Source: Streptomyces sp. NBC_01775 (lineage in GTDB: Bacteria > Actinomycetota > Actinomycetes > Streptomycetales > Streptomycetaceae). Taken from it: a DNA stretch of 64,000 nucleotides. Of the stretch, positions 30,468-36,643 are shown in pieces (within the stretch, counting starts at the first letter, position 1; each line of letters starts with the position of its first letter). The translations under genes were made by a program, and so were the position numbers. Below the pieces are notes generated by a model. The model was not told the origin of the DNA and did no database searches. It worked only from the letters and a program-made list of their open reading frames with translations. The DNA lies in NCBI RefSeq assembly GCF_035917675.1, contig NZ_CP109104.1, positions 1,054,001-1,118,000 of the forward strand, read 5' to 3'.

Positions 30468-32625
30468 TCAGCGGCCGTCCCGACCGGGGGCGGCCGGCCG
30501 ACGGAGGGCCGAGGGCAGGGCCGCGGAGGGGAGCCCGTCCGGCGTCAGTCGCTCGGCGAGAGCGGCACGCTCCTCGGAGAAGGCGGGATCGGAGCGGTAG
30601 TCGCCATGGCCCAGGACCGGCCGCGGGAGCGGGTGTTCGCGGGTACGGCCGTAGACGAAGGGGTCGGGCAGGGGACCGCGGTCCACGGCCGGGCCGCCCC
30701 CGCTCACCCGGACGGGCCCGCCCACCGGGTCGGTCAGACGCCACAGGTTGCCCCAGCAGTCCACCTCGCGGTGCAGCGCGTCCAGCGCGCCGGGGCCGAA
30801 GTAGGCGGGGAACCAGCGGCCGTAGATCCGCTCCAGCGGGGACCCGTAGGTGAGCAGCGCGATCCGACGGCGGACCGGGGAAGGCAGCTGCCAGACGGCG
30901 GCTGCGGCCGGGACGCTGCCCTGGGAGTGGCCGGAGATCAGGACGCGCCCGTCCGTGCTCTCCACCCAGGTGGCGATCCGCCAGGCGAGGTCGGGCACCG
31001 CGCGCTCCGCGTAACAGGGCGGCGCGAAGGGGTGCGCGGCGCGCGGCCAGAACGTGCCCGCGTCCCACAGGACGCCGACGGCGCTGCGTGAGGAGGGGTC
31101 CCGGTAGGCGGTCCGGCCCCGGTCGAGGAGGAAGAGCAGGCCCAGCGCGGCCATCCAGGAGCCCACCTCCTGGAGGGTGTGGGCGATCCCGGAACCCTGG
31201 CCCGGAGTCCGTCGGGGAGGTGGCCGCTGAGCACGGCGGCGGAATCGAGCAGCAGCAGCGCCAGCGCCGCGGTGACGGTCAGCCAGGGCGCCGAATCGAG
31301 GATCCGGGCGCGCGCGATGGCCCGCGTGATGCTCCGGGTGCGCGCACGGTCGGGGCCGGGGACGCGAACCCGCGCAGCGGGGTGCGCCCGCCGAGCCGCC
31401 GCCGGTGCAGCCACACCCCCACGGCGGCGAGTGCCGCGATCAGCACCCCTTGGGCCGACGCGATGACCCCGAACGCCCAGGCTCCGGTCAGCTCGCCCGC
31501 CGAGACCCAGCCGGGGCGTGGCCACAGCGCGTAGACGGCGGCGAGCACGAGCGTCGCGAGCCCGAAGCCGGGCAGCGCGCGAACGGCCGGACCGTCGGCC
31601 CGGGCGTCGAGCCGGCGCTCGCTGCGCCCTCGCCGGGCGACGGCGTATACCGCCCAGCAGACACCCGCGCCGGCCAGCGCGCCGAGGGCCCAGCCCGCCG
31701 CGTCCCGTACGGCGTCGCCCGCGCCGCGGTCGTGAACGAGCGCCCGCTCCCCTGCCGCTCGGGGCCGGCCCGCTCCTCGGCCAGCAGGCGGGAGGCTGTC
31801 ACGGCCCGCTCCAGCTCCTCGCGTACGGCCTGGGCCTGCGGGTGCCGGGCACCGAGCGTGGCTGCGGACCGCTGCGCGGCGGCGGCCAGCACGTCGGTGA
31901 GCCGTTCGGCGCTCGCCAGGTCGCCGTCCTGAGCCGCGATCTCGTGCCGGGCCGCGGCCAGGGTGACCAGCGCGGCCAGGGCGCGGGGGTGTTCGGCGCC
32001 CCAGCTCTCGATCAGCGCGTCGCAGACCGTCTCCAGCTCCTGGACGAGCTTCGCCGCCTCGCGTTTCCTGCCTCGTGCCCCCGCCGCCCGGAAGAGCACG
32101 GAGCAGCAGCGCATCCGGATTTCGAGCCGCTCCCGGTCGCTCTCCACCGAGGCCGCCAGTTCCCGCGCCTCGCGCGCGTCTTTCCGGGCCACGTCCCAGT
32201 CGCCCGCGTGCGCCTCGACGACGGCGAGGTTCGCCAGGGTGTGCGCCCGCTCCGCCTCCCCCGGGCCAGCGACAGGGCGCTGCCCAGCACGCTGCGCGCC
32301 CGGAGGTGCTCGCCCGCCTCGATGAACAGGACACCGAGACGGTTGTGCGTCGCACAGCCCCCTCCGCCGGGATGCGCTCTGTGGCGACCCGGCTGTACGC
32401 CTCCACCAGCGCTGACTTGAGCGCCTCCGCCTCCCCCGCCTCCCGCAGCAGGGCCACGAAGAGGGCGAAGTTCCCCGCGTCCTCGGCATCGAGGAGCAGC
32501 CAGGGGTGCGCGAGGATGCCGGGCAGCGCCTCGGCGAGCGCCGCCCGCGCGCCCGGCTCGCCGCGCAGCACGCGCTCGACCCGGCCGGTGACGTCCGCCC
32601 ACACCAGGGGCTCGGGTTCAGTCAT
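30468..32625 (-). pseudogene. TPR-membrane-alpha/beta-hydrolase reading frame broken by five frameshifts
   Basis: From ATG 32625 the homologous-looking frame changes five times, near 32365, 32255, 31765, 31365 and 31195. Each is repaired by adding one G or C in a short run. The restored product would be about 720 residues: TPR-like helices (1-300; HTLANLAVVEAHAGDWDVARKDA), membrane helices (about 320-430 and 470-500), then a hydrolase-like domain with the nucleophile elbow ISGHSQGSVPAAA and the LTYGSPLERIYGRWFPAYFG block. The last frame (30468-31166) resembles a separate conserved Streptomyces membrane hydrolase, so the TPR gene may be fused to it. Its start overlaps the protease end by 8 bases. 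Confidence 0.65.
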
Positions 32626-33467
32626 CGTCGTCGGGTCCGTCGGGCCCCCCGAACAGGTCGGTGACCCGCTTGAGCGTCCGGCCCCGGCCCTCCTCGGCGT
32701 CGGCCGCGGTGATCAGTCCGCTCTCCTCCCACTGCCGCAGCGAGGCCAGGACCCGGCCGGCATCGCTGAGGATGTCCTCGTTGCCGGGCCGCGCCCGGGG
32801 CGGAGGAATGTCGGCGGCGGACCGCGCGGGGCCGGACCTCGGCGCGGCGACCAGGGCTCTGAGATGCTCCACGCCGAAGTGCGGGAAGATTTCCATGGCG
32901 TAGCGGACGGTCGCGGCGAACAGGACGTTGCTGCCGGCCCCCCGGGTCCTGCCGGTTGAGCTGCTGCTCCAGGAGGATGCCCACGACGGGCCGCTCGCCG
33001 CGCTCCTGCTCGCCCGCCTCGACGGGGCCGCCCGAGTATCCGGCGAAGCTGCCGAGGAGCTGGTCCACCTGGAGCTGCATCACCTCCAGTTCGCCGCCTT
33101 CCACGCACCGGTGCGCGATCGGCGCGTGAGTGACCCGGCCGCTGAGGTGCGCCGTCTCCTGGGGCGGGCGGTAGCGGCAGTTCCAGGCGACCTTGGGCCT
33201 GGGGGTGTCCGTCCGGGGTGCGGCGGCCAGCCGGTGTCCGTGGGCGCCCTCGACGGTGACCAGGGCCAGGTCCCGCTCCTTGACGGCGTCGCACTTGCGG
33301 CCCGGGAGGCGGCGCCCGTCGGGGAGTTCGAGGGTGAGGGCGGCCTCTTCGGAGGACAGGCCGCGCAGGCAGTGCAGGGCGGTGAGCACGAAGCCGGGGG
33401 TGATCAGGAATCCGGCGCCGAGATAGGTGTCGGACTCGTACAGGTGCACCCAGTGCTGCTCGCTCAT
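32618..33467 (-). pseudogene. Trypsin-like serine protease, one frameshift (conflict-system type)
   Basis: Residues 1-150 are a trypsin-fold protease with the full triad: His32 in LTALHCL, Asp66 in KERDLALV and Ser145 in FAGYSGGPV. No signal peptide is present, so it acts in the cytoplasm, unlike digestive relatives. After LLEQQLNRQDP the frame breaks in a run of six G (around 32940). With five G it continues GAGSNVLFAATVRYAMEIFPHFGVEHLRAL to a C-terminal helical domain ending at 32618. The start lies 16 bases after the Trypco1 stop. Cytoplasmic trypsins beside Trypco1 are known from actinobacterial conflict systems. Whether the frameshift is real or a sequencing error is open. Confidence 0.72.
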
Positions 33468-33483
33468 GACTCATGCGCCCCGG

Positions 33484-33852
33484 TCATGACTCGGCCTGAG
33501 CCGGACCTGTGCGCTCGACGGTGAGCGTCACCTCGAAGGACGCTTCGGCCGATGCCTTGGAGAGGATCACTCCCGCCTCGGCCGCCAGTGTCAGGCCGAA
33601 GGTGACCTCCGCGCTCCTGACCGACCAGCCGCCACGCTCCGGTACCCGGGCCAGCGAGTCCTGGGCGAGCGCCGACGCCTGCACGATGGCCTGCTGGATC
33701 TCCTCCGAACGGCCGTCCAGGGGCGCGGAGGCGCGGGTTCTGCTGCCGATCTGCCGGCCCCCGCGGGAGTCCAGTTCGACGGTCTCCACCCGTACGCCGG
33801 TCAGTGCCCCGGATTCCTCGCCGGTCGCGCCCTGTGGCGTGCCGCCCTCCAT
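33484..33852 (-). CDS. Trypco1 (CU044_2847 family) protein
   Basis: A 122-residue protein from ATG 33852 behind GAGGGG; an open TTG lies 11 codons upstream. VRVETVELDSRGG, the long central helix EEIQQAIVQASALAQDSLARV and the C-terminal VTFGLTLAAEAGVILSKASAEASFEVTL fit the small domain named Trypco1 because it co-occurs with cytoplasmic trypsins. It is thought to sense or assemble the system before protease activation. Here it is the first gene, with the protease and TPR gene directly downstream on the same strand. This is the only member of the trio whose frame is intact. Confidence 0.82.
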   Translation of the reverse strand: MEGGTPQGATGEESGALTGVRVETVELDSRGGRQIGSRTRASAPLDGRSEEIQQAIVQASALAQDSLARVPERGGWSVRSAEVTFGLTLAAEAGVILSKASAEASFEVTLTVERTGPAQAES

Positions 33853-33909: not shown

Positions 33910-34578
33910 CTAGGCGCTCTTGAGGTAGCGAAGAACCGCCAGGACGCGGCGGTGGCCGGTCTCGGAAGGCGGGAGGCCCAGCTTGCCGAAGATGTTGGCG
34001 ACGTGCTTCTCCACGGCGCGTTCGGACACGACGAAGGAGGCGGCGATGGCCTGGTTGGTGCGCCCCTCCGCCATCAGGGCCAGCACCTCGCGCTCGCGCG
34101 GGGTGAGCGCGTCCAGCTCCGTGGCCCGCCCGGCGGCCCCGAACAGCTGGGAGACGACCTCCGGGTCCAGGGCTGTGCCCCCGGCCGCGACCCGCCGCAG
34201 CGCCTCGGCGAACTCGCCGATGTCGACGACGCGTTCCTTGAGCAGGTAGCCGACCCCGGCCGCGCCGTCGCCCAGCAGCCGTGCCGCGTACTTCGTCTCG
34301 ACGTACTGAGAGAAGATCAGCACCCCCACGCCGGGGTGCTCGGAGCGGAGGGTGACGGCGGCGCGCAGCCCCTCGTCGGAGTGGCCCGGGGGCAGCCGGA
34401 TGTCCACCACGGCGGCGTCGGGCCGGTGTTCGTCGACGGCGGCCAGCAGCCGCTCCGCGTCGTCCACGGCGGCGACGACCTCGATGCCGCGCAGCTCCAG
34501 GAGCTGGGCGAGGCCGTCGCGCAGGATGGCGGAGTCCTCGGCGATGACAACGCGCACGGCAGGGCCCCGTCCCGTCAT
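33910..34578 (-). CDS. NarL/LuxR-family response regulator
   Basis: A 222-residue regulator. The receiver (about 8-125) has the acidic pair in VVIAEDSAILRDG, phospho-Asp in DAAVVDIRLPPG and a conserved Lys in YLLKERV. The LuxR helix-turn-helix (about 158-215) has LTPREREVLALMAEGRTNQAIA and ERAVEKHVANIFGKLGL. It should be phosphorylated by the histidine kinase encoded 24 bases upstream; the targets are probably membrane-stress genes, by analogy with LiaR-type regulators. ATG 34578 is preferred; an internal GTG six codons later is also possible. Confidence 0.94.
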   Translation of the reverse strand: MTGRGPAVRVVIAEDSAILRDGLAQLLELRGIEVVAAVDDAERLLAAVDEHRPDAAVVDIRLPPGHSDEGLRAAVTLRSEHPGVGVLIFSQYVETKYAARLLGDGAAGVGYLLKERVVDIGEFAEALRRVAAGGTALDPEVVSQLFGAAGRATELDALTPREREVLALMAEGRTNQAIAASFVVSERAVEKHVANIFGKLGLPPSETGHRRVLAVLRYLKSA

Positions 34579-34602
34579 TCGTGCTGGTGGTCCGCCCGGC
34601 GC

Positions 34603-35955
34603 TCAGCCCATGGGCAGATTGACGGTGATCACCGTAGGCCCTCCTGGCGGGCTGACGCACTCCAGGGTGCCGTCGACCGTCCGGACGCGGGCGAGCAGCC
34701 CGGTCAGCCCGCTGCCCGCACCCACGGCGGCCCCGCCCCTGCCGTCGTCGCGTACGGTCAGCCGAAGGGTGCCCCCGGCCCCGTGGGCGTCCCCGTGAAC
34801 GTCGACGGCGACGTGGCGGGCCGCGCTGTGTTTGGCGGCGTTGGCCAGGAGTTCGGCGACGCAGAAGTACGCGATGGACTCGACCGCCTGCGCGGGGCGG
34901 TTCGGCAGCTCGCAGCGCAGCTCGGCCGGCAGGGGGCCGGCCGTCACGAGGGTGGCGAGCGCGGTCTCCAGCCCCTGGTCGAGGACGGGCGGATGGATGC
35001 CCTTGACCAGGTCGCGCAGGTCGGAGACGGCCGCTGTGGCGTTGCCGCTGGCGGTCTCCACCACGCTCAGCAGCCGCTCCTTCTCCGCCCCGGCCGCGAT
35101 CAGCTCCCGGATGAGCGTCAGATGCATGCCCAGGCCCACGAGCCGGGCCTGGGTGCCGTCGTGGAGGTCGCGTTCGATACGGCGCAGGGTCGCCGCCGCG
35201 TCGTCGACGGCCTGGGCGCGGGTCTCCTCCAGGGTGCGGATGCGCTGCTCGGCGGAACTGGGTCCGGCCGAGGCGCGCAGCAGGGCCCGGTGCGGGGCCA
35301 GTGCCCAGCGCAGCAGCCGGGGCGCCAGCAGCACGAGCAGCGCCCCCAGGAGGACGGGGACGAGGAGCCGGGGCCAGGTGTCGAACTCGACGTCGGCGAC
35401 CTCCAGGGAGACCCGCCGCTCGGAGCCGTCCGCCCGGTGTTCGGTGATGTGGTTCCAGCGCTGGAGGAGGGGGTGGGCCAACAGCAGCGGCCCGTAGGCG
35501 TAGCCCACCACGGCGGCGGCCACCGGGGGCAGCGCGGCAAGTGGCGCCAGCAGCACCAGCCCCACGGCACGCCACCCCGCCCGCTCGGTCAGCAGCGCCT
35601 GCCGCCAGCCCCGTGGCCCCGGGCCCGTACGGCGACGGCGGGAGAGTCGTTGGGCCCACTCGCCGGTCTCGCCCAGCAGCCCGCGGGCCGCCACGCGTTG
35701 GAGGTCTCCGGCGGCGAGCGCGCCGCGCACCGTCAGCGCCAGCAGCCACAGCCCCGGCGACGTCCAGGACAGCGCGGCGCCCAGCACCAGCCCCGCCACC
35801 ACGAGGAGGAGGGCGACGAGCGCGAGGGGCAGGGCCAGCAGCGCGTAGAGCAGCGCGGCCAGCGCGCGCGGGCAAAACGGTGCGGCGAGGGCAGCGCGTA
35901 CGGTGCGCTGGGCGGCGCGTACGGTGCCCGGTGTGCGGGACATACCCGTCAACAT
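34603..35955 (-). CDS. Sensor histidine kinase (HisKA_3 type)
   Basis: A 450-residue kinase. An N-terminal membrane sensor domain (about 15-250) has hydrophobic segments around 35-75, 135-170 and 205-225. HisKA_3 has the phospho-His in RRIERDLHDGTQARLV (about residue 265), and the ATPase domain has LLANAAKHSAARHVAVDV, LRLTVRDDGRGG and GSGLTGLLARV. The frame is open further upstream; ATG 35955 follows GGAGG at about 10 bases, and ATG 35943 is an alternative. It pairs with the downstream response regulator. Confidence 0.92.
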   Translation of the reverse strand: MLTGMSRTPGTVRAAQRTVRAALAAPFCPRALAALLYALLALPLALVALLLVVAGLVLGAALSWTSPGLWLLALTVRGALAAGDLQRVAARGLLGETGEWAQRLSRRRRTGPGPRGWRQALLTERAGWRAVGLVLLAPLAALPPVAAAVVGYAYGPLLLAHPLLQRWNHITEHRADGSERRVSLEVADVEFDTWPRLLVPVLLGALLVLLAPRLLRWALAPHRALLRASAGPSSAEQRIRTLEETRAQAVDDAAATLRRIERDLHDGTQARLVGLGMHLTLIRELIAAGAEKERLLSVVETASGNATAAVSDLRDLVKGIHPPVLDQGLETALATLVTAGPLPAELRCELPNRPAQAVESIAYFCVAELLANAAKHSAARHVAVDVHGDAHGAGGTLRLTVRDDGRGGAAVGAGSGLTGLLARVRTVDGTLECVSPPGGPTVITVNLPMG

Positions 35956-35995
35956 ACGGGCCCCGCCTCCGGCCGGTCCCACCGCTTCCGGCTGC

Positions 35996-36643
35996 TCAGA
36001 GCTGGTGGATGACGGGTATGGACAGCGCGCCGCCGACGGCGGCGGCCAGGAGCGCGGGCAGGACTGCCCGCCACAGCGCCGCCCGTGCGGGACCCAGCAG
36101 CGCGGTGGCCAGCCGCGCCTGGAGCGCGGAGAGGCCCCTTCCGATCCAGAGCAGCGCGAGGACGGCCACTCCGCCGCCCAGGAGGTGCACCGTCCACGCT
36201 CCTGCGAGAGTGGGGCCGCCCCAGTCGGTCGCGGGGGTGGCATCGCCCATCCCGATCACGTCGCGCACCGGATAGCCGACGTTCAGCAGGACGAGGCTCA
36301 GGCCGTAGACGGCGACCATGGCGGCGATCACGTTGAGCGGGAGGCTCACGACGGCGTGCGCCAGGGCCCGGAGGGCGGGGCGGCGCCCGGGCTCTCCCGG
36401 CTTCCCCGGCTCCCCCGCTTCGATGCCCAGCAGCCGCCGCGCCAGGCCGCGTTGGACGCGCCCCGCAGGACCGCCGACGAGGGCGAGCGGCACACACAGA
36501 ATGCCGACGGGAGCGGCGAGCAGCGCGTAGGCCACCCGCCGCCAGGTCGCCGCGCGGAAGGGCTCCCGCAGGACGGTGGCCCAGGAGCGGCGGCGGGACT
36601 GGGGCGCGGTGGGCCGGGGTGCGGTGGGCGGGTGGATCGTCAT
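35996..36643 (-). CDS. Membrane protein resembling a detached kinase sensor domain
   Basis: A 215-residue protein with about four membrane helices. The region REPFRAATWRRVAYALLAAPVGILCVPLALVGGP, followed by RGLARRLLG, parallels the start of the neighbouring kinase (ALLYALLALPLALVALLLVV and ARGLLG). This suggests it is the same sensor fold without kinase domains. It lies 40 bases upstream of the kinase on the same strand and probably belongs to that operon, perhaps as a co-sensor. ATG 36643 follows GAGG closely; the open frame continues upstream to 36763. Confidence 0.75.
   Translation of the reverse strand: MTIHPPTAPRPTAPQSRRRSWATVLREPFRAATWRRVAYALLAAPVGILCVPLALVGGPAGRVQRGLARRLLGIEAGEPGKPGEPGRRPALRALAHAVVSLPLNVIAAMVAVYGLSLVLLNVGYPVRDVIGMGDATPATDWGGPTLAGAWTVHLLGGGVAVLALLWIGRGLSALQARLATALLGPARAALWRAVLPALLAAAVGGALSIPVIHQL

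What the first reader, a model, noticed from the sequence alone, without database searches (positions are those of the whole stretch)
30468..33852. Trypco1-trypsin-TPR/hydrolase operon: candidate biological conflict system
Three minus-strand genes in tight order encode a Trypco1 (CU044_2847-like) protein, a cytoplasmic trypsin with His32/Asp66/Ser145, and a TPR-membrane-hydrolase frame. Kaur, Burroughs, Iyer and Aravind described Trypco domains as partners of cytoplasmic trypsins in NTP-regulated conflict systems of multicellular bacteria. A TPR joined to a membrane-embedded alpha/beta hydrolase as the putative effector is not an arrangement I recognise. If intact relatives exist, the logic would be sensor (Trypco1), protease (activator) and membrane-lipid-attacking effector.
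Basis: partly seen in the sequence, partly recalled or inferred. Interest (0 to 1): 0.85.

Follow-up and report, generated by a model that had tools for sequence, protein, structure and literature searches.

The report
Decayed protease operon with swappable payload
A Streptomyces genome holds a broken copy of a three-gene protease operon; in intact relatives a constant adaptor carries exchangeable end domains, several of them copies of the cell's own proteins such as master regulators or ribosomal protein S1, which looks like a modular defence or reprogramming device that nobody has tested yet.

Summary
The operon is real: Trypco1 (intact), trypsin-like protease (triad present, one later frame change), then TPR + membrane hydrolase. 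The third gene is a pseudogene: six pieces in alternating frames, ~278 residues missing. Intact TPR-hydrolase fusions exist in other Streptomyces. But the hydrolase is one of many C-termini: one kinesin-light-chain-like TPR cassette is in the third gene of 26 of 28 loci, followed by AfsR, NsdA-like regulator, SigB/F-type sigma factor, ribosomal protein S1, CHAT, HAD, hydrolase or unknowns. Two payloads are near-copies of the host's own gene (S1 99%, sigma 97%); others are less alike. The AfsR tree suggests repeated capture. Trypco1 goes with intact trypsin triads: 39 of 41, against 0 of 11 broken, so it looks like a protease partner, not a sensor. Best reading: a protease-gated, TPR-carried payload module of the Kaur/Aravind kind without MoxR/vWA; release is inferred. 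Rival: integrated decoys. New variant of a known kind; the window copy is dead or dying.

The parts
33484..33852 (-). Trypco1 (CU044_2847 family), intact ORF, 122 aa
   Evidence: PF19493 E 3.1e-14; NF041216 over cut-off; GC3 frame steady
32618..33467 (-). trypsin-like peptidase; catalytic H32/D66/S145 intact; one frame change near 32950, so the C-terminal ~107 residues lie in another frame (ORF 32618-32896)
   Evidence: Pfam Trypsin_2/Trypsin; GC3 plot; piece in the second frame aligns to relatives; triad
31758..32625 (-). constant TPR cassette of the third gene, in three frames (32601-32359, 32380-32261, 32252-31758)
   Evidence: tblastn of P0014; profile A1 hit in this genome; start overlaps the end of the trypsin gene
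30468..31737 (-). remnant of the payload: C-terminal part of a polytopic membrane alpha/beta-hydrolase, in three frames; the N-terminal block with the HG motif and first membrane helices is missing (~278 residues of P0014)
   Evidence: tblastn of P0014, P0013, P0001; paralogue in the same genome; alignments A2, A3
33910..36243 (-). upstream two-component genes (response regulator, sensor kinase); neighbours, not part of the system
   Evidence: Pfam; no such cluster among those recurring beside 26 relatives of the operon

Best explanation
The locus is a decayed member of a modular three-gene system of Streptomycetaceae: Trypco1 - trypsin-like protease - (TPR cassette + exchangeable payload). 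Shown by sequence: the constant trio, the exchange of payloads, payloads that are near full-length copies of host proteins, an intact triad in all 39 loci that have Trypco1 (one of them, L098, frameshifted and judged from two pieces). Inferred: the TPR superhelix (kinesin-light-chain type) holds a payload in check or in place through a flexible linker; a trigger frees the protease from Trypco1; the protease clips the linker and releases the payload (a regulator, sigma factor, CHAT protease, hydrolase or RNA-binding protein), which reprograms or stops the cell. In the window the payload is the membrane hydrolase, and it is broken, so this copy can hardly do this any more.
For: Trypco1+trypsin upstream in 15 of 15 loci found by the TPR profile. 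TPR cassette in the third gene of 26 of 28 loci examined (the other two are a partial trypsin hit and a VMAP locus; 12 of the 26 built the profile). TPR fold: kinesin light chain chains by profile (E 1.1e-11); AlphaFold model, mean pLDDT 84, 14 helices and then a low-confidence tail from residue 303; Foldseek best hit a kinesin-light-chain-like TPR (E 2.9e-5, TM 0.42). Four payloads reach NCBIfam cut-offs as AfsR, S1, SigBFG, NsdA family over nearly the whole profile. No flanking gene cluster common to the loci. Precedent: trypsin-like proteases activate pro-nucleases by cleavage in Hachiman and AVAST (PMC12799240, outline with abstract and discussion section seen); proteases that free sigma factors in type III CRISPR systems (recalled, from no call).
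Against: No cleavage, trigger or phage phenotype was tested. 11 of 52 loci have a broken catalytic triad and no Trypco1 (S1-type, one 'unknown D' and part of the 'unknown C' type), so release by cleavage cannot be the general rule. PADLOC finds no family in Trypco1 or the two hydrolase fusions given, and only weak matches in the trypsin. A link to defence islands was not tested.
Confidence: 0.45

Rival explanations
1. Integrated decoys: the C-terminus is a bait copy of a host protein that invaders attack (AfsR, sigma factor, S1, membrane hydrolase); binding or damage of the bait is sensed through the TPR cassette and the protease is the alarm.
For: S1 payload 99% and sigma payload 97% identical to the same genome's own gene, dS 0.02 and 0.06, against 0.24-0.27 and 0.43-0.56 to two other species each; S1 identity stops just inside both ends of the reading frame; in the AfsR tree fused and own core copies pair at 100/99 and 99/99 in two genomes and well-supported branches force at least 4 changes of the label; the five S1 or S1-like loci examined have a dead protease; the presumed catalytic His is N in 3 of the 13 fused hydrolases readable there. 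Kaur et al. proposed decoys for inactive enzyme copies (passages).
Against: Near-identity was seen in only two payloads; seven AfsR payloads are 68-83%, one NsdA-like 72%, three hydrolases 56-67% to a core copy and two S1-like ones 35-36%. CHAT, HAD and VMAP-C payloads are not obvious host targets; 10 of 14 fused hydrolases show all four motifs; I know of no phage protein that targets these payloads.
Confidence: 0.22
2. Not immune at all: a developmental or stress switch that stores copies of global regulators behind a protease gate.
For: AfsR, SARP, NsdA-like, SigB/F-type, LacI and DUF742 payloads: most are regulators.
Against: Patchy distribution (trypsin relatives in 25 of 343 genus genomes; cassette in 14 of 293 order genomes, own included; both with few candidates scored per genome) and exchange of payloads are usual in conflict modules (inference); S1, CHAT, HAD and hydrolase payloads do not fit.
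Confidence: 0.2
3. The frame changes in the window are assembly errors and the gene is intact in the organism.
For: GC3 coding signal is still strong in every piece, and the pieces lie close to one another in the DNA.
Against: A ~278-residue block is missing, five neighbouring genes show no frame change, genome completeness is given as 99.97%.
Confidence: 0.08

Closest known systems
VMAP ternary systems (MoxR-vWA-VMAP; Kaur et al. 2020, PMC7159879)
   Same: trypsin paired with Trypco1; variable effector domains that include S1-like, HAD and caspase-type ones and TPRs (passages)
   Different: no MoxR or vWA gene seen among recurrent neighbours here (by eye); the trypsin is a stand-alone gene and the payload sits behind a TPR cassette; the window's genome has a trypsin/VMAP-C locus with Trypco1 elsewhere
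EACC1-caspase two-gene systems (same paper, section 33 read)
   Same: a constant part followed by up to 50 alternative C-terminal domains, including EF-Tu
   Different: protease is a separate trypsin, the carrier is a TPR, no EACC1; payloads near-identical to the host's own genes are not described in what I read
Trypsin-nuclease pairs of Hachiman/AVAST (PMC12799240)
   Same: trypsin-like protease next to a protein that it may switch on by cleavage
   Different: no nuclease and no known sensor gene; cleavage not shown here
Plant NLR integrated decoys (recalled; only search listings seen)
   Same: host protein copies fused into an immune-like scaffold
   Different: bacterial, TPR/protease scaffold, function untested

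Membership tests
Trypco1 (PF19493 / NF041216) | profile score over curated cut-off | tested here: met
   53.8 vs 24.6 bits; 45.6 vs 23
Trypsin-like peptidase (Trypsin_2) | profile match and H/D/S triad | tested here: met
   31.1 vs 27.6 bits; H32, D66, S145
TPR cassette of this system | match to profile A1 of intact relatives | tested here: met
   E 3.2e-51 at G000:C1:1085689-1086267, one of the three frames
Streptomyces membrane alpha/beta-hydrolase | HG motif strand plus HSQGS, TDP and His motifs | tested here: not met
   C-terminal motifs present in ORF 30468-31166, N-terminal block with the HG motif deleted; in 14 fused relatives the HG and HSQGS motifs are present in 14 of 14
VMAP ternary system | MoxR, vWA and VMAP genes in one neighbourhood | tested here: not met
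   216 flanking genes called beside 26 relatives; no cluster spans more than 5 loci, and those spanning 3 or more show no MoxR/vWA by eye (clustering of simply called genes, not a profile search)
EACC1-caspase system | EACC1 domain and caspase constant part | tested here: not met
   Pfam scans of the constant parts show Trypco1, trypsin and TPR only
Proteolytically released effector | cleavage of the partner by the protease | not testable with these tools
   needs biochemistry
Anti-phage defence system | protection against phage | not testable with these tools
   PADLOC gives no family for Trypco1 or two hydrolase fusions, weak trypsin hits only

The most novel reading that the evidence does not exclude
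Bacteria run an immune scaffold with integrated decoys: a Trypco1-trypsin-TPR module that repeatedly captures, and keeps updated by recombination, near full-length copies of the cell's own core proteins (AfsR, sigma factor, S1, membrane hydrolase) as baits for phage factors that attack the originals.
Probability: 0.2. Interest if true: 0.92.

Novelty: new variant of a known kind. Interest (0 to 1): 0.72.

Why it matters
If right, Streptomyces carries a payload-exchanging protease module that copies the host's own global regulators and even ribosomal protein S1. Either reading (released payload or bait) would be new for bacteria in this form as far as my searches reach, and both can be tested directly with intact operons. 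It also gives a testable hint on Trypco1: in the loci examined it was found only with catalytically intact proteases.

Tried and rejected
Independent capture of the hydrolase in the window: its C-terminal piece looked closer to core copies (65-71%) than to fused copies in G104/G247 (about 55%), but the tree puts all 14 fused rows on one side of a branch (95/47; 99% of bootstrap trees), so one old capture is not ruled out (P0003 and the second copies of G104/G247, which are P0001 and P0005, were left out). Empty site: the upstream response regulator has no close syntenic relative in 26 genomes (best non-own hit 78%; no gene from downstream of the operon within its fetched flank), so insertion of the operon could not be shown. 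Structure of the intact TPR-hydrolase P0014: mean pLDDT 58, too poor to confirm the fold; only the order of strands and helices around HGID, GHSQGS and TDP is compatible with a split alpha/beta-hydrolase. Pfam sees the hydrolase only weakly (Abhydrolase_8 E 0.12; Lipase_3 E 0.004 in the core copy) and not at all in L083. The catalytic role of the His that is N in three fused hydrolases is inferred from motif order. One query (tpr3) was in a wrong frame and found nothing; one search replaced it. In one search the G323 row was misaligned and is not used. No report of this three-gene architecture was seen in search listings 7, 43, 44, 58, 59, 62, 63, 90, 91, which cover open-licence PMC papers only.

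Full report
What is in the window. The stretch 30468-33852 on the minus strand holds three genes in tight order. The first (33852-33487) is an intact Trypco1 protein (PF19493, E 3.1e-14; NF041216 over cut-off). The second (33467-32618) is a trypsin-like peptidase with His32, Asp66 and Ser145 in place; its reading frame changes once near 32950, after the catalytic Ser, and the relatives' C-terminal part continues in the second frame. The third starts at 32625, overlapping the end of the second. It is a pseudogene: the intact relative P0014 aligns as six pieces in frames 2,1,3,2,1,3 and its residues 296-573 have no counterpart. A GC3 frame count gave 5 changes in this gene, 1 in the trypsin gene, 1 in the neighbouring kinase gene (a single open frame, so 1 can be noise) and 0 in Trypco1 and the five other neighbouring genes tested. 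Coding signal is otherwise strong, so the decay is probably recent.

The C-terminal part is related to a membrane hydrolase that is near-universal in the genus: a match in 319 of 343 genomes. The window's own genome has an intact 859-residue copy near C1:198,759, 67% identical over the C-terminal part.

Relatives. In 343 genus genomes, 25 have a trypsin match at E <= 1e-8, own included, with ten candidates scored per genome. I fetched 27 regions around 28 of the 29 non-own rows, plus the other Trypco1 locus of the window's genome, 28 loci in all; one weak row (G267) was left out. A profile of the TPR region matched the third gene in 26 of the 28; the exceptions are L101, a partial trypsin hit, and L109, the own-genome trypsin/VMAP-C locus. 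Twelve of these loci built the profile. An order-wide search found the cassette in 14 of 293 genomes, own included, and in 2 of 9 genera, with seven candidates scored per genome, so this is a lower bound.

Intact TPR-hydrolase fusions. Fourteen database proteins of 962-1161 residues carry TPR + hydrolase; P0001 and P0005 are those of G104 and G247 (1083 and 1093 residues from the longest ORF). P0012 is named partial, and P0003 seems to leave frame near its end. All 14 have the HG motif strand that the window copy lost and the HSQGS nucleophile motif; the TDP motif is in 13, and the presumed catalytic His is H in 10, N in 3 and unreadable in 1.

Payload exchange. Behind the same cassette I classed the C-termini of 47 loci (52 less 5 duplicates) by hand, some by Pfam/NCBIfam profile and the rest by similarity of translations (tally): AfsR 12, membrane hydrolase 7, an unknown family C 6, CHAT 4, SARP 3, S1-like 3, S1 2, NsdA-like 2, and one each of HAD, SigB/F-type sigma, DUF742, SARP plus sigma region 4, and four unknowns. 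Some of these ORFs are short or end at a contig end. Database proteins add VMAP-C and LacI. L101, L109, L243, L246 and L247 were not classed. NCBIfam calls one example each as AfsR (1714 vs 1430 bits), S1 (948 vs 691), SigBFG (309 vs 234) and NsdA family (427 vs 75) over nearly the whole profile length. In the trypsin tree the window sits in a clade of 10 (100/100) whose members carry hydrolase, HAD and an unknown payload, so payloads change while the protease is inherited.

Copies of the host's own genes. In G007 the S1 payload is 98.8% identical to the genome's own S1 over 492 codons with dS 0.02, while dS to S1 of two other species is 0.24-0.27. Identity begins at about codon 12 of S1 and ends within the last codons, with no shared flank. 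In G024 the same junction exists with about 80% nucleotide identity over trypsin and cassette, but the 183 bases of its S1 that the contig holds differ by 10 from its own core gene and from both G007 copies, while the two core genes differ by 1; so G007's payload was either re-copied or homogenised by gene conversion. In G284 the sigma payload is 97.5% identical to the own gene, dS 0.06, against 0.43-0.56 to two others. These two are the only near-copies seen. Seven AfsR payloads are 68-83% identical to the own AfsR, dN/dS 0.17-0.37, so they are under constraint. In the AfsR tree (7 fused, 11 core rows) the fused label needs 5 changes and well-supported branches force at least 4; 180 of 500 shuffles need as few, so the label is not clustered. 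Gene conversion could imitate this. The NsdA-like payload is 72% identical to the own gene; fused hydrolases are 56-67% identical to the core copy used as query, and core copies of other genomes 67-77% to it over most of its length; the S1-like payloads of G079 and G323 are only 35-36% identical to S1. For the hydrolase one old origin is not ruled out.

Trypco1 and the protease. Over 52 trypsins including the window, the triad is H/D/S in 41 (in L098 the Ser lies in a second piece because its gene is frameshifted); 39 of these have Trypco1, L093 and L251 do not. The triad is broken in 11, none with Trypco1 in the fetched stretch. Fisher p 1.3e-9 ignores relatedness and near-duplicates; the best tree has three changes of the Trypco1 label, but well-supported branches force only one. 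This suggests that Trypco1 serves the active protease, as inhibitor, chaperone or cofactor. It does not fit a general sensor.

The cassette. Profile search against solved structures gives kinesin light chain TPRs (E 1.1e-11); the model has 14 helices at mean pLDDT 84 and a low-confidence tail from residue 303, where the linker to the payload begins; Foldseek agrees on TPR folds, with modest TM-scores (0.42 for the best by E-value).

Mechanism. Shown: constant trio, exchange, host-derived payloads, intact triad with Trypco1. Inferred: TPR holds the payload, Trypco1 restrains the protease, a trigger leads to cleavage and release. I give 0.45 to this chain as a whole, 0.22 to integrated decoys, 0.2 to a developmental switch. 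The dead-protease subfamily speaks against cleavage as a universal step and for scaffold or decoy use there.

Known work. Kaur et al. 2020 (passages, and section 33 read) named Trypco1/2 as partners of trypsins in VMAP systems, described up to 50 variable domains behind a caspase in EACC1 systems, and proposed decoys for inactive enzyme copies. PMC10907252 treats Trypco as adaptor domains near diversity-generating retroelements (passages). Tuck et al. 2025, PMC12799240, show trypsin-like proteases that activate nucleases (outline with abstract, and discussion). No report of this three-gene system appeared in my searches of the open-licence library.

Noticed in passing
L109 (G000:C1:3124000-3141000): The window's genome has a second Trypco1 gene beside a trypsin/VMAP-C protein and, by eye, an AAA (MoxR-like) gene: a canonical-looking VMAP locus.
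   Followed up: partly
L008:6757-9336: An 859-residue polytopic membrane hydrolase, with relatives in 319 of 343 genus genomes, matches Pfam only weakly and looks like an uncharacterised near-core Streptomyces protein.
   Followed up: partly
L100, L105, L107, L245, L248, L249 C-termini: A recurrent payload family (motif IRLIAHAGASY...VIISSPWN) had no Pfam match in the two members scanned; it occurs with intact trypsin + Trypco1 (L100), intact trypsin without Trypco1 (L251) and broken trypsin without Trypco1.
   Followed up: no
L102, L103, L106 upstream of the trypsin: These loci share a divergent kinase-like gene and a ~540-residue gene with C-terminal membrane helices, by eye; possibly extra parts of that subtype.
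   Followed up: no
L097:6302-8098 (-): The sigma payload resembles MzaA, a sigma-type protein of the MZA anti-phage system (PADLOC E 1.4e-21), over its sigma region only.
   Followed up: no
L098, L207, P0003, L087: Other copies also look broken (trypsin in two frames in L098; third gene ending early in L207 and L087; P0003 leaving frame near its end), so decay of this operon may be frequent.
   Followed up: no
window 33910-36243: A sensor kinase/response regulator pair lies directly upstream on the same strand; the best non-own relative of the regulator in 26 genomes is 78% identical.
   Followed up: partly
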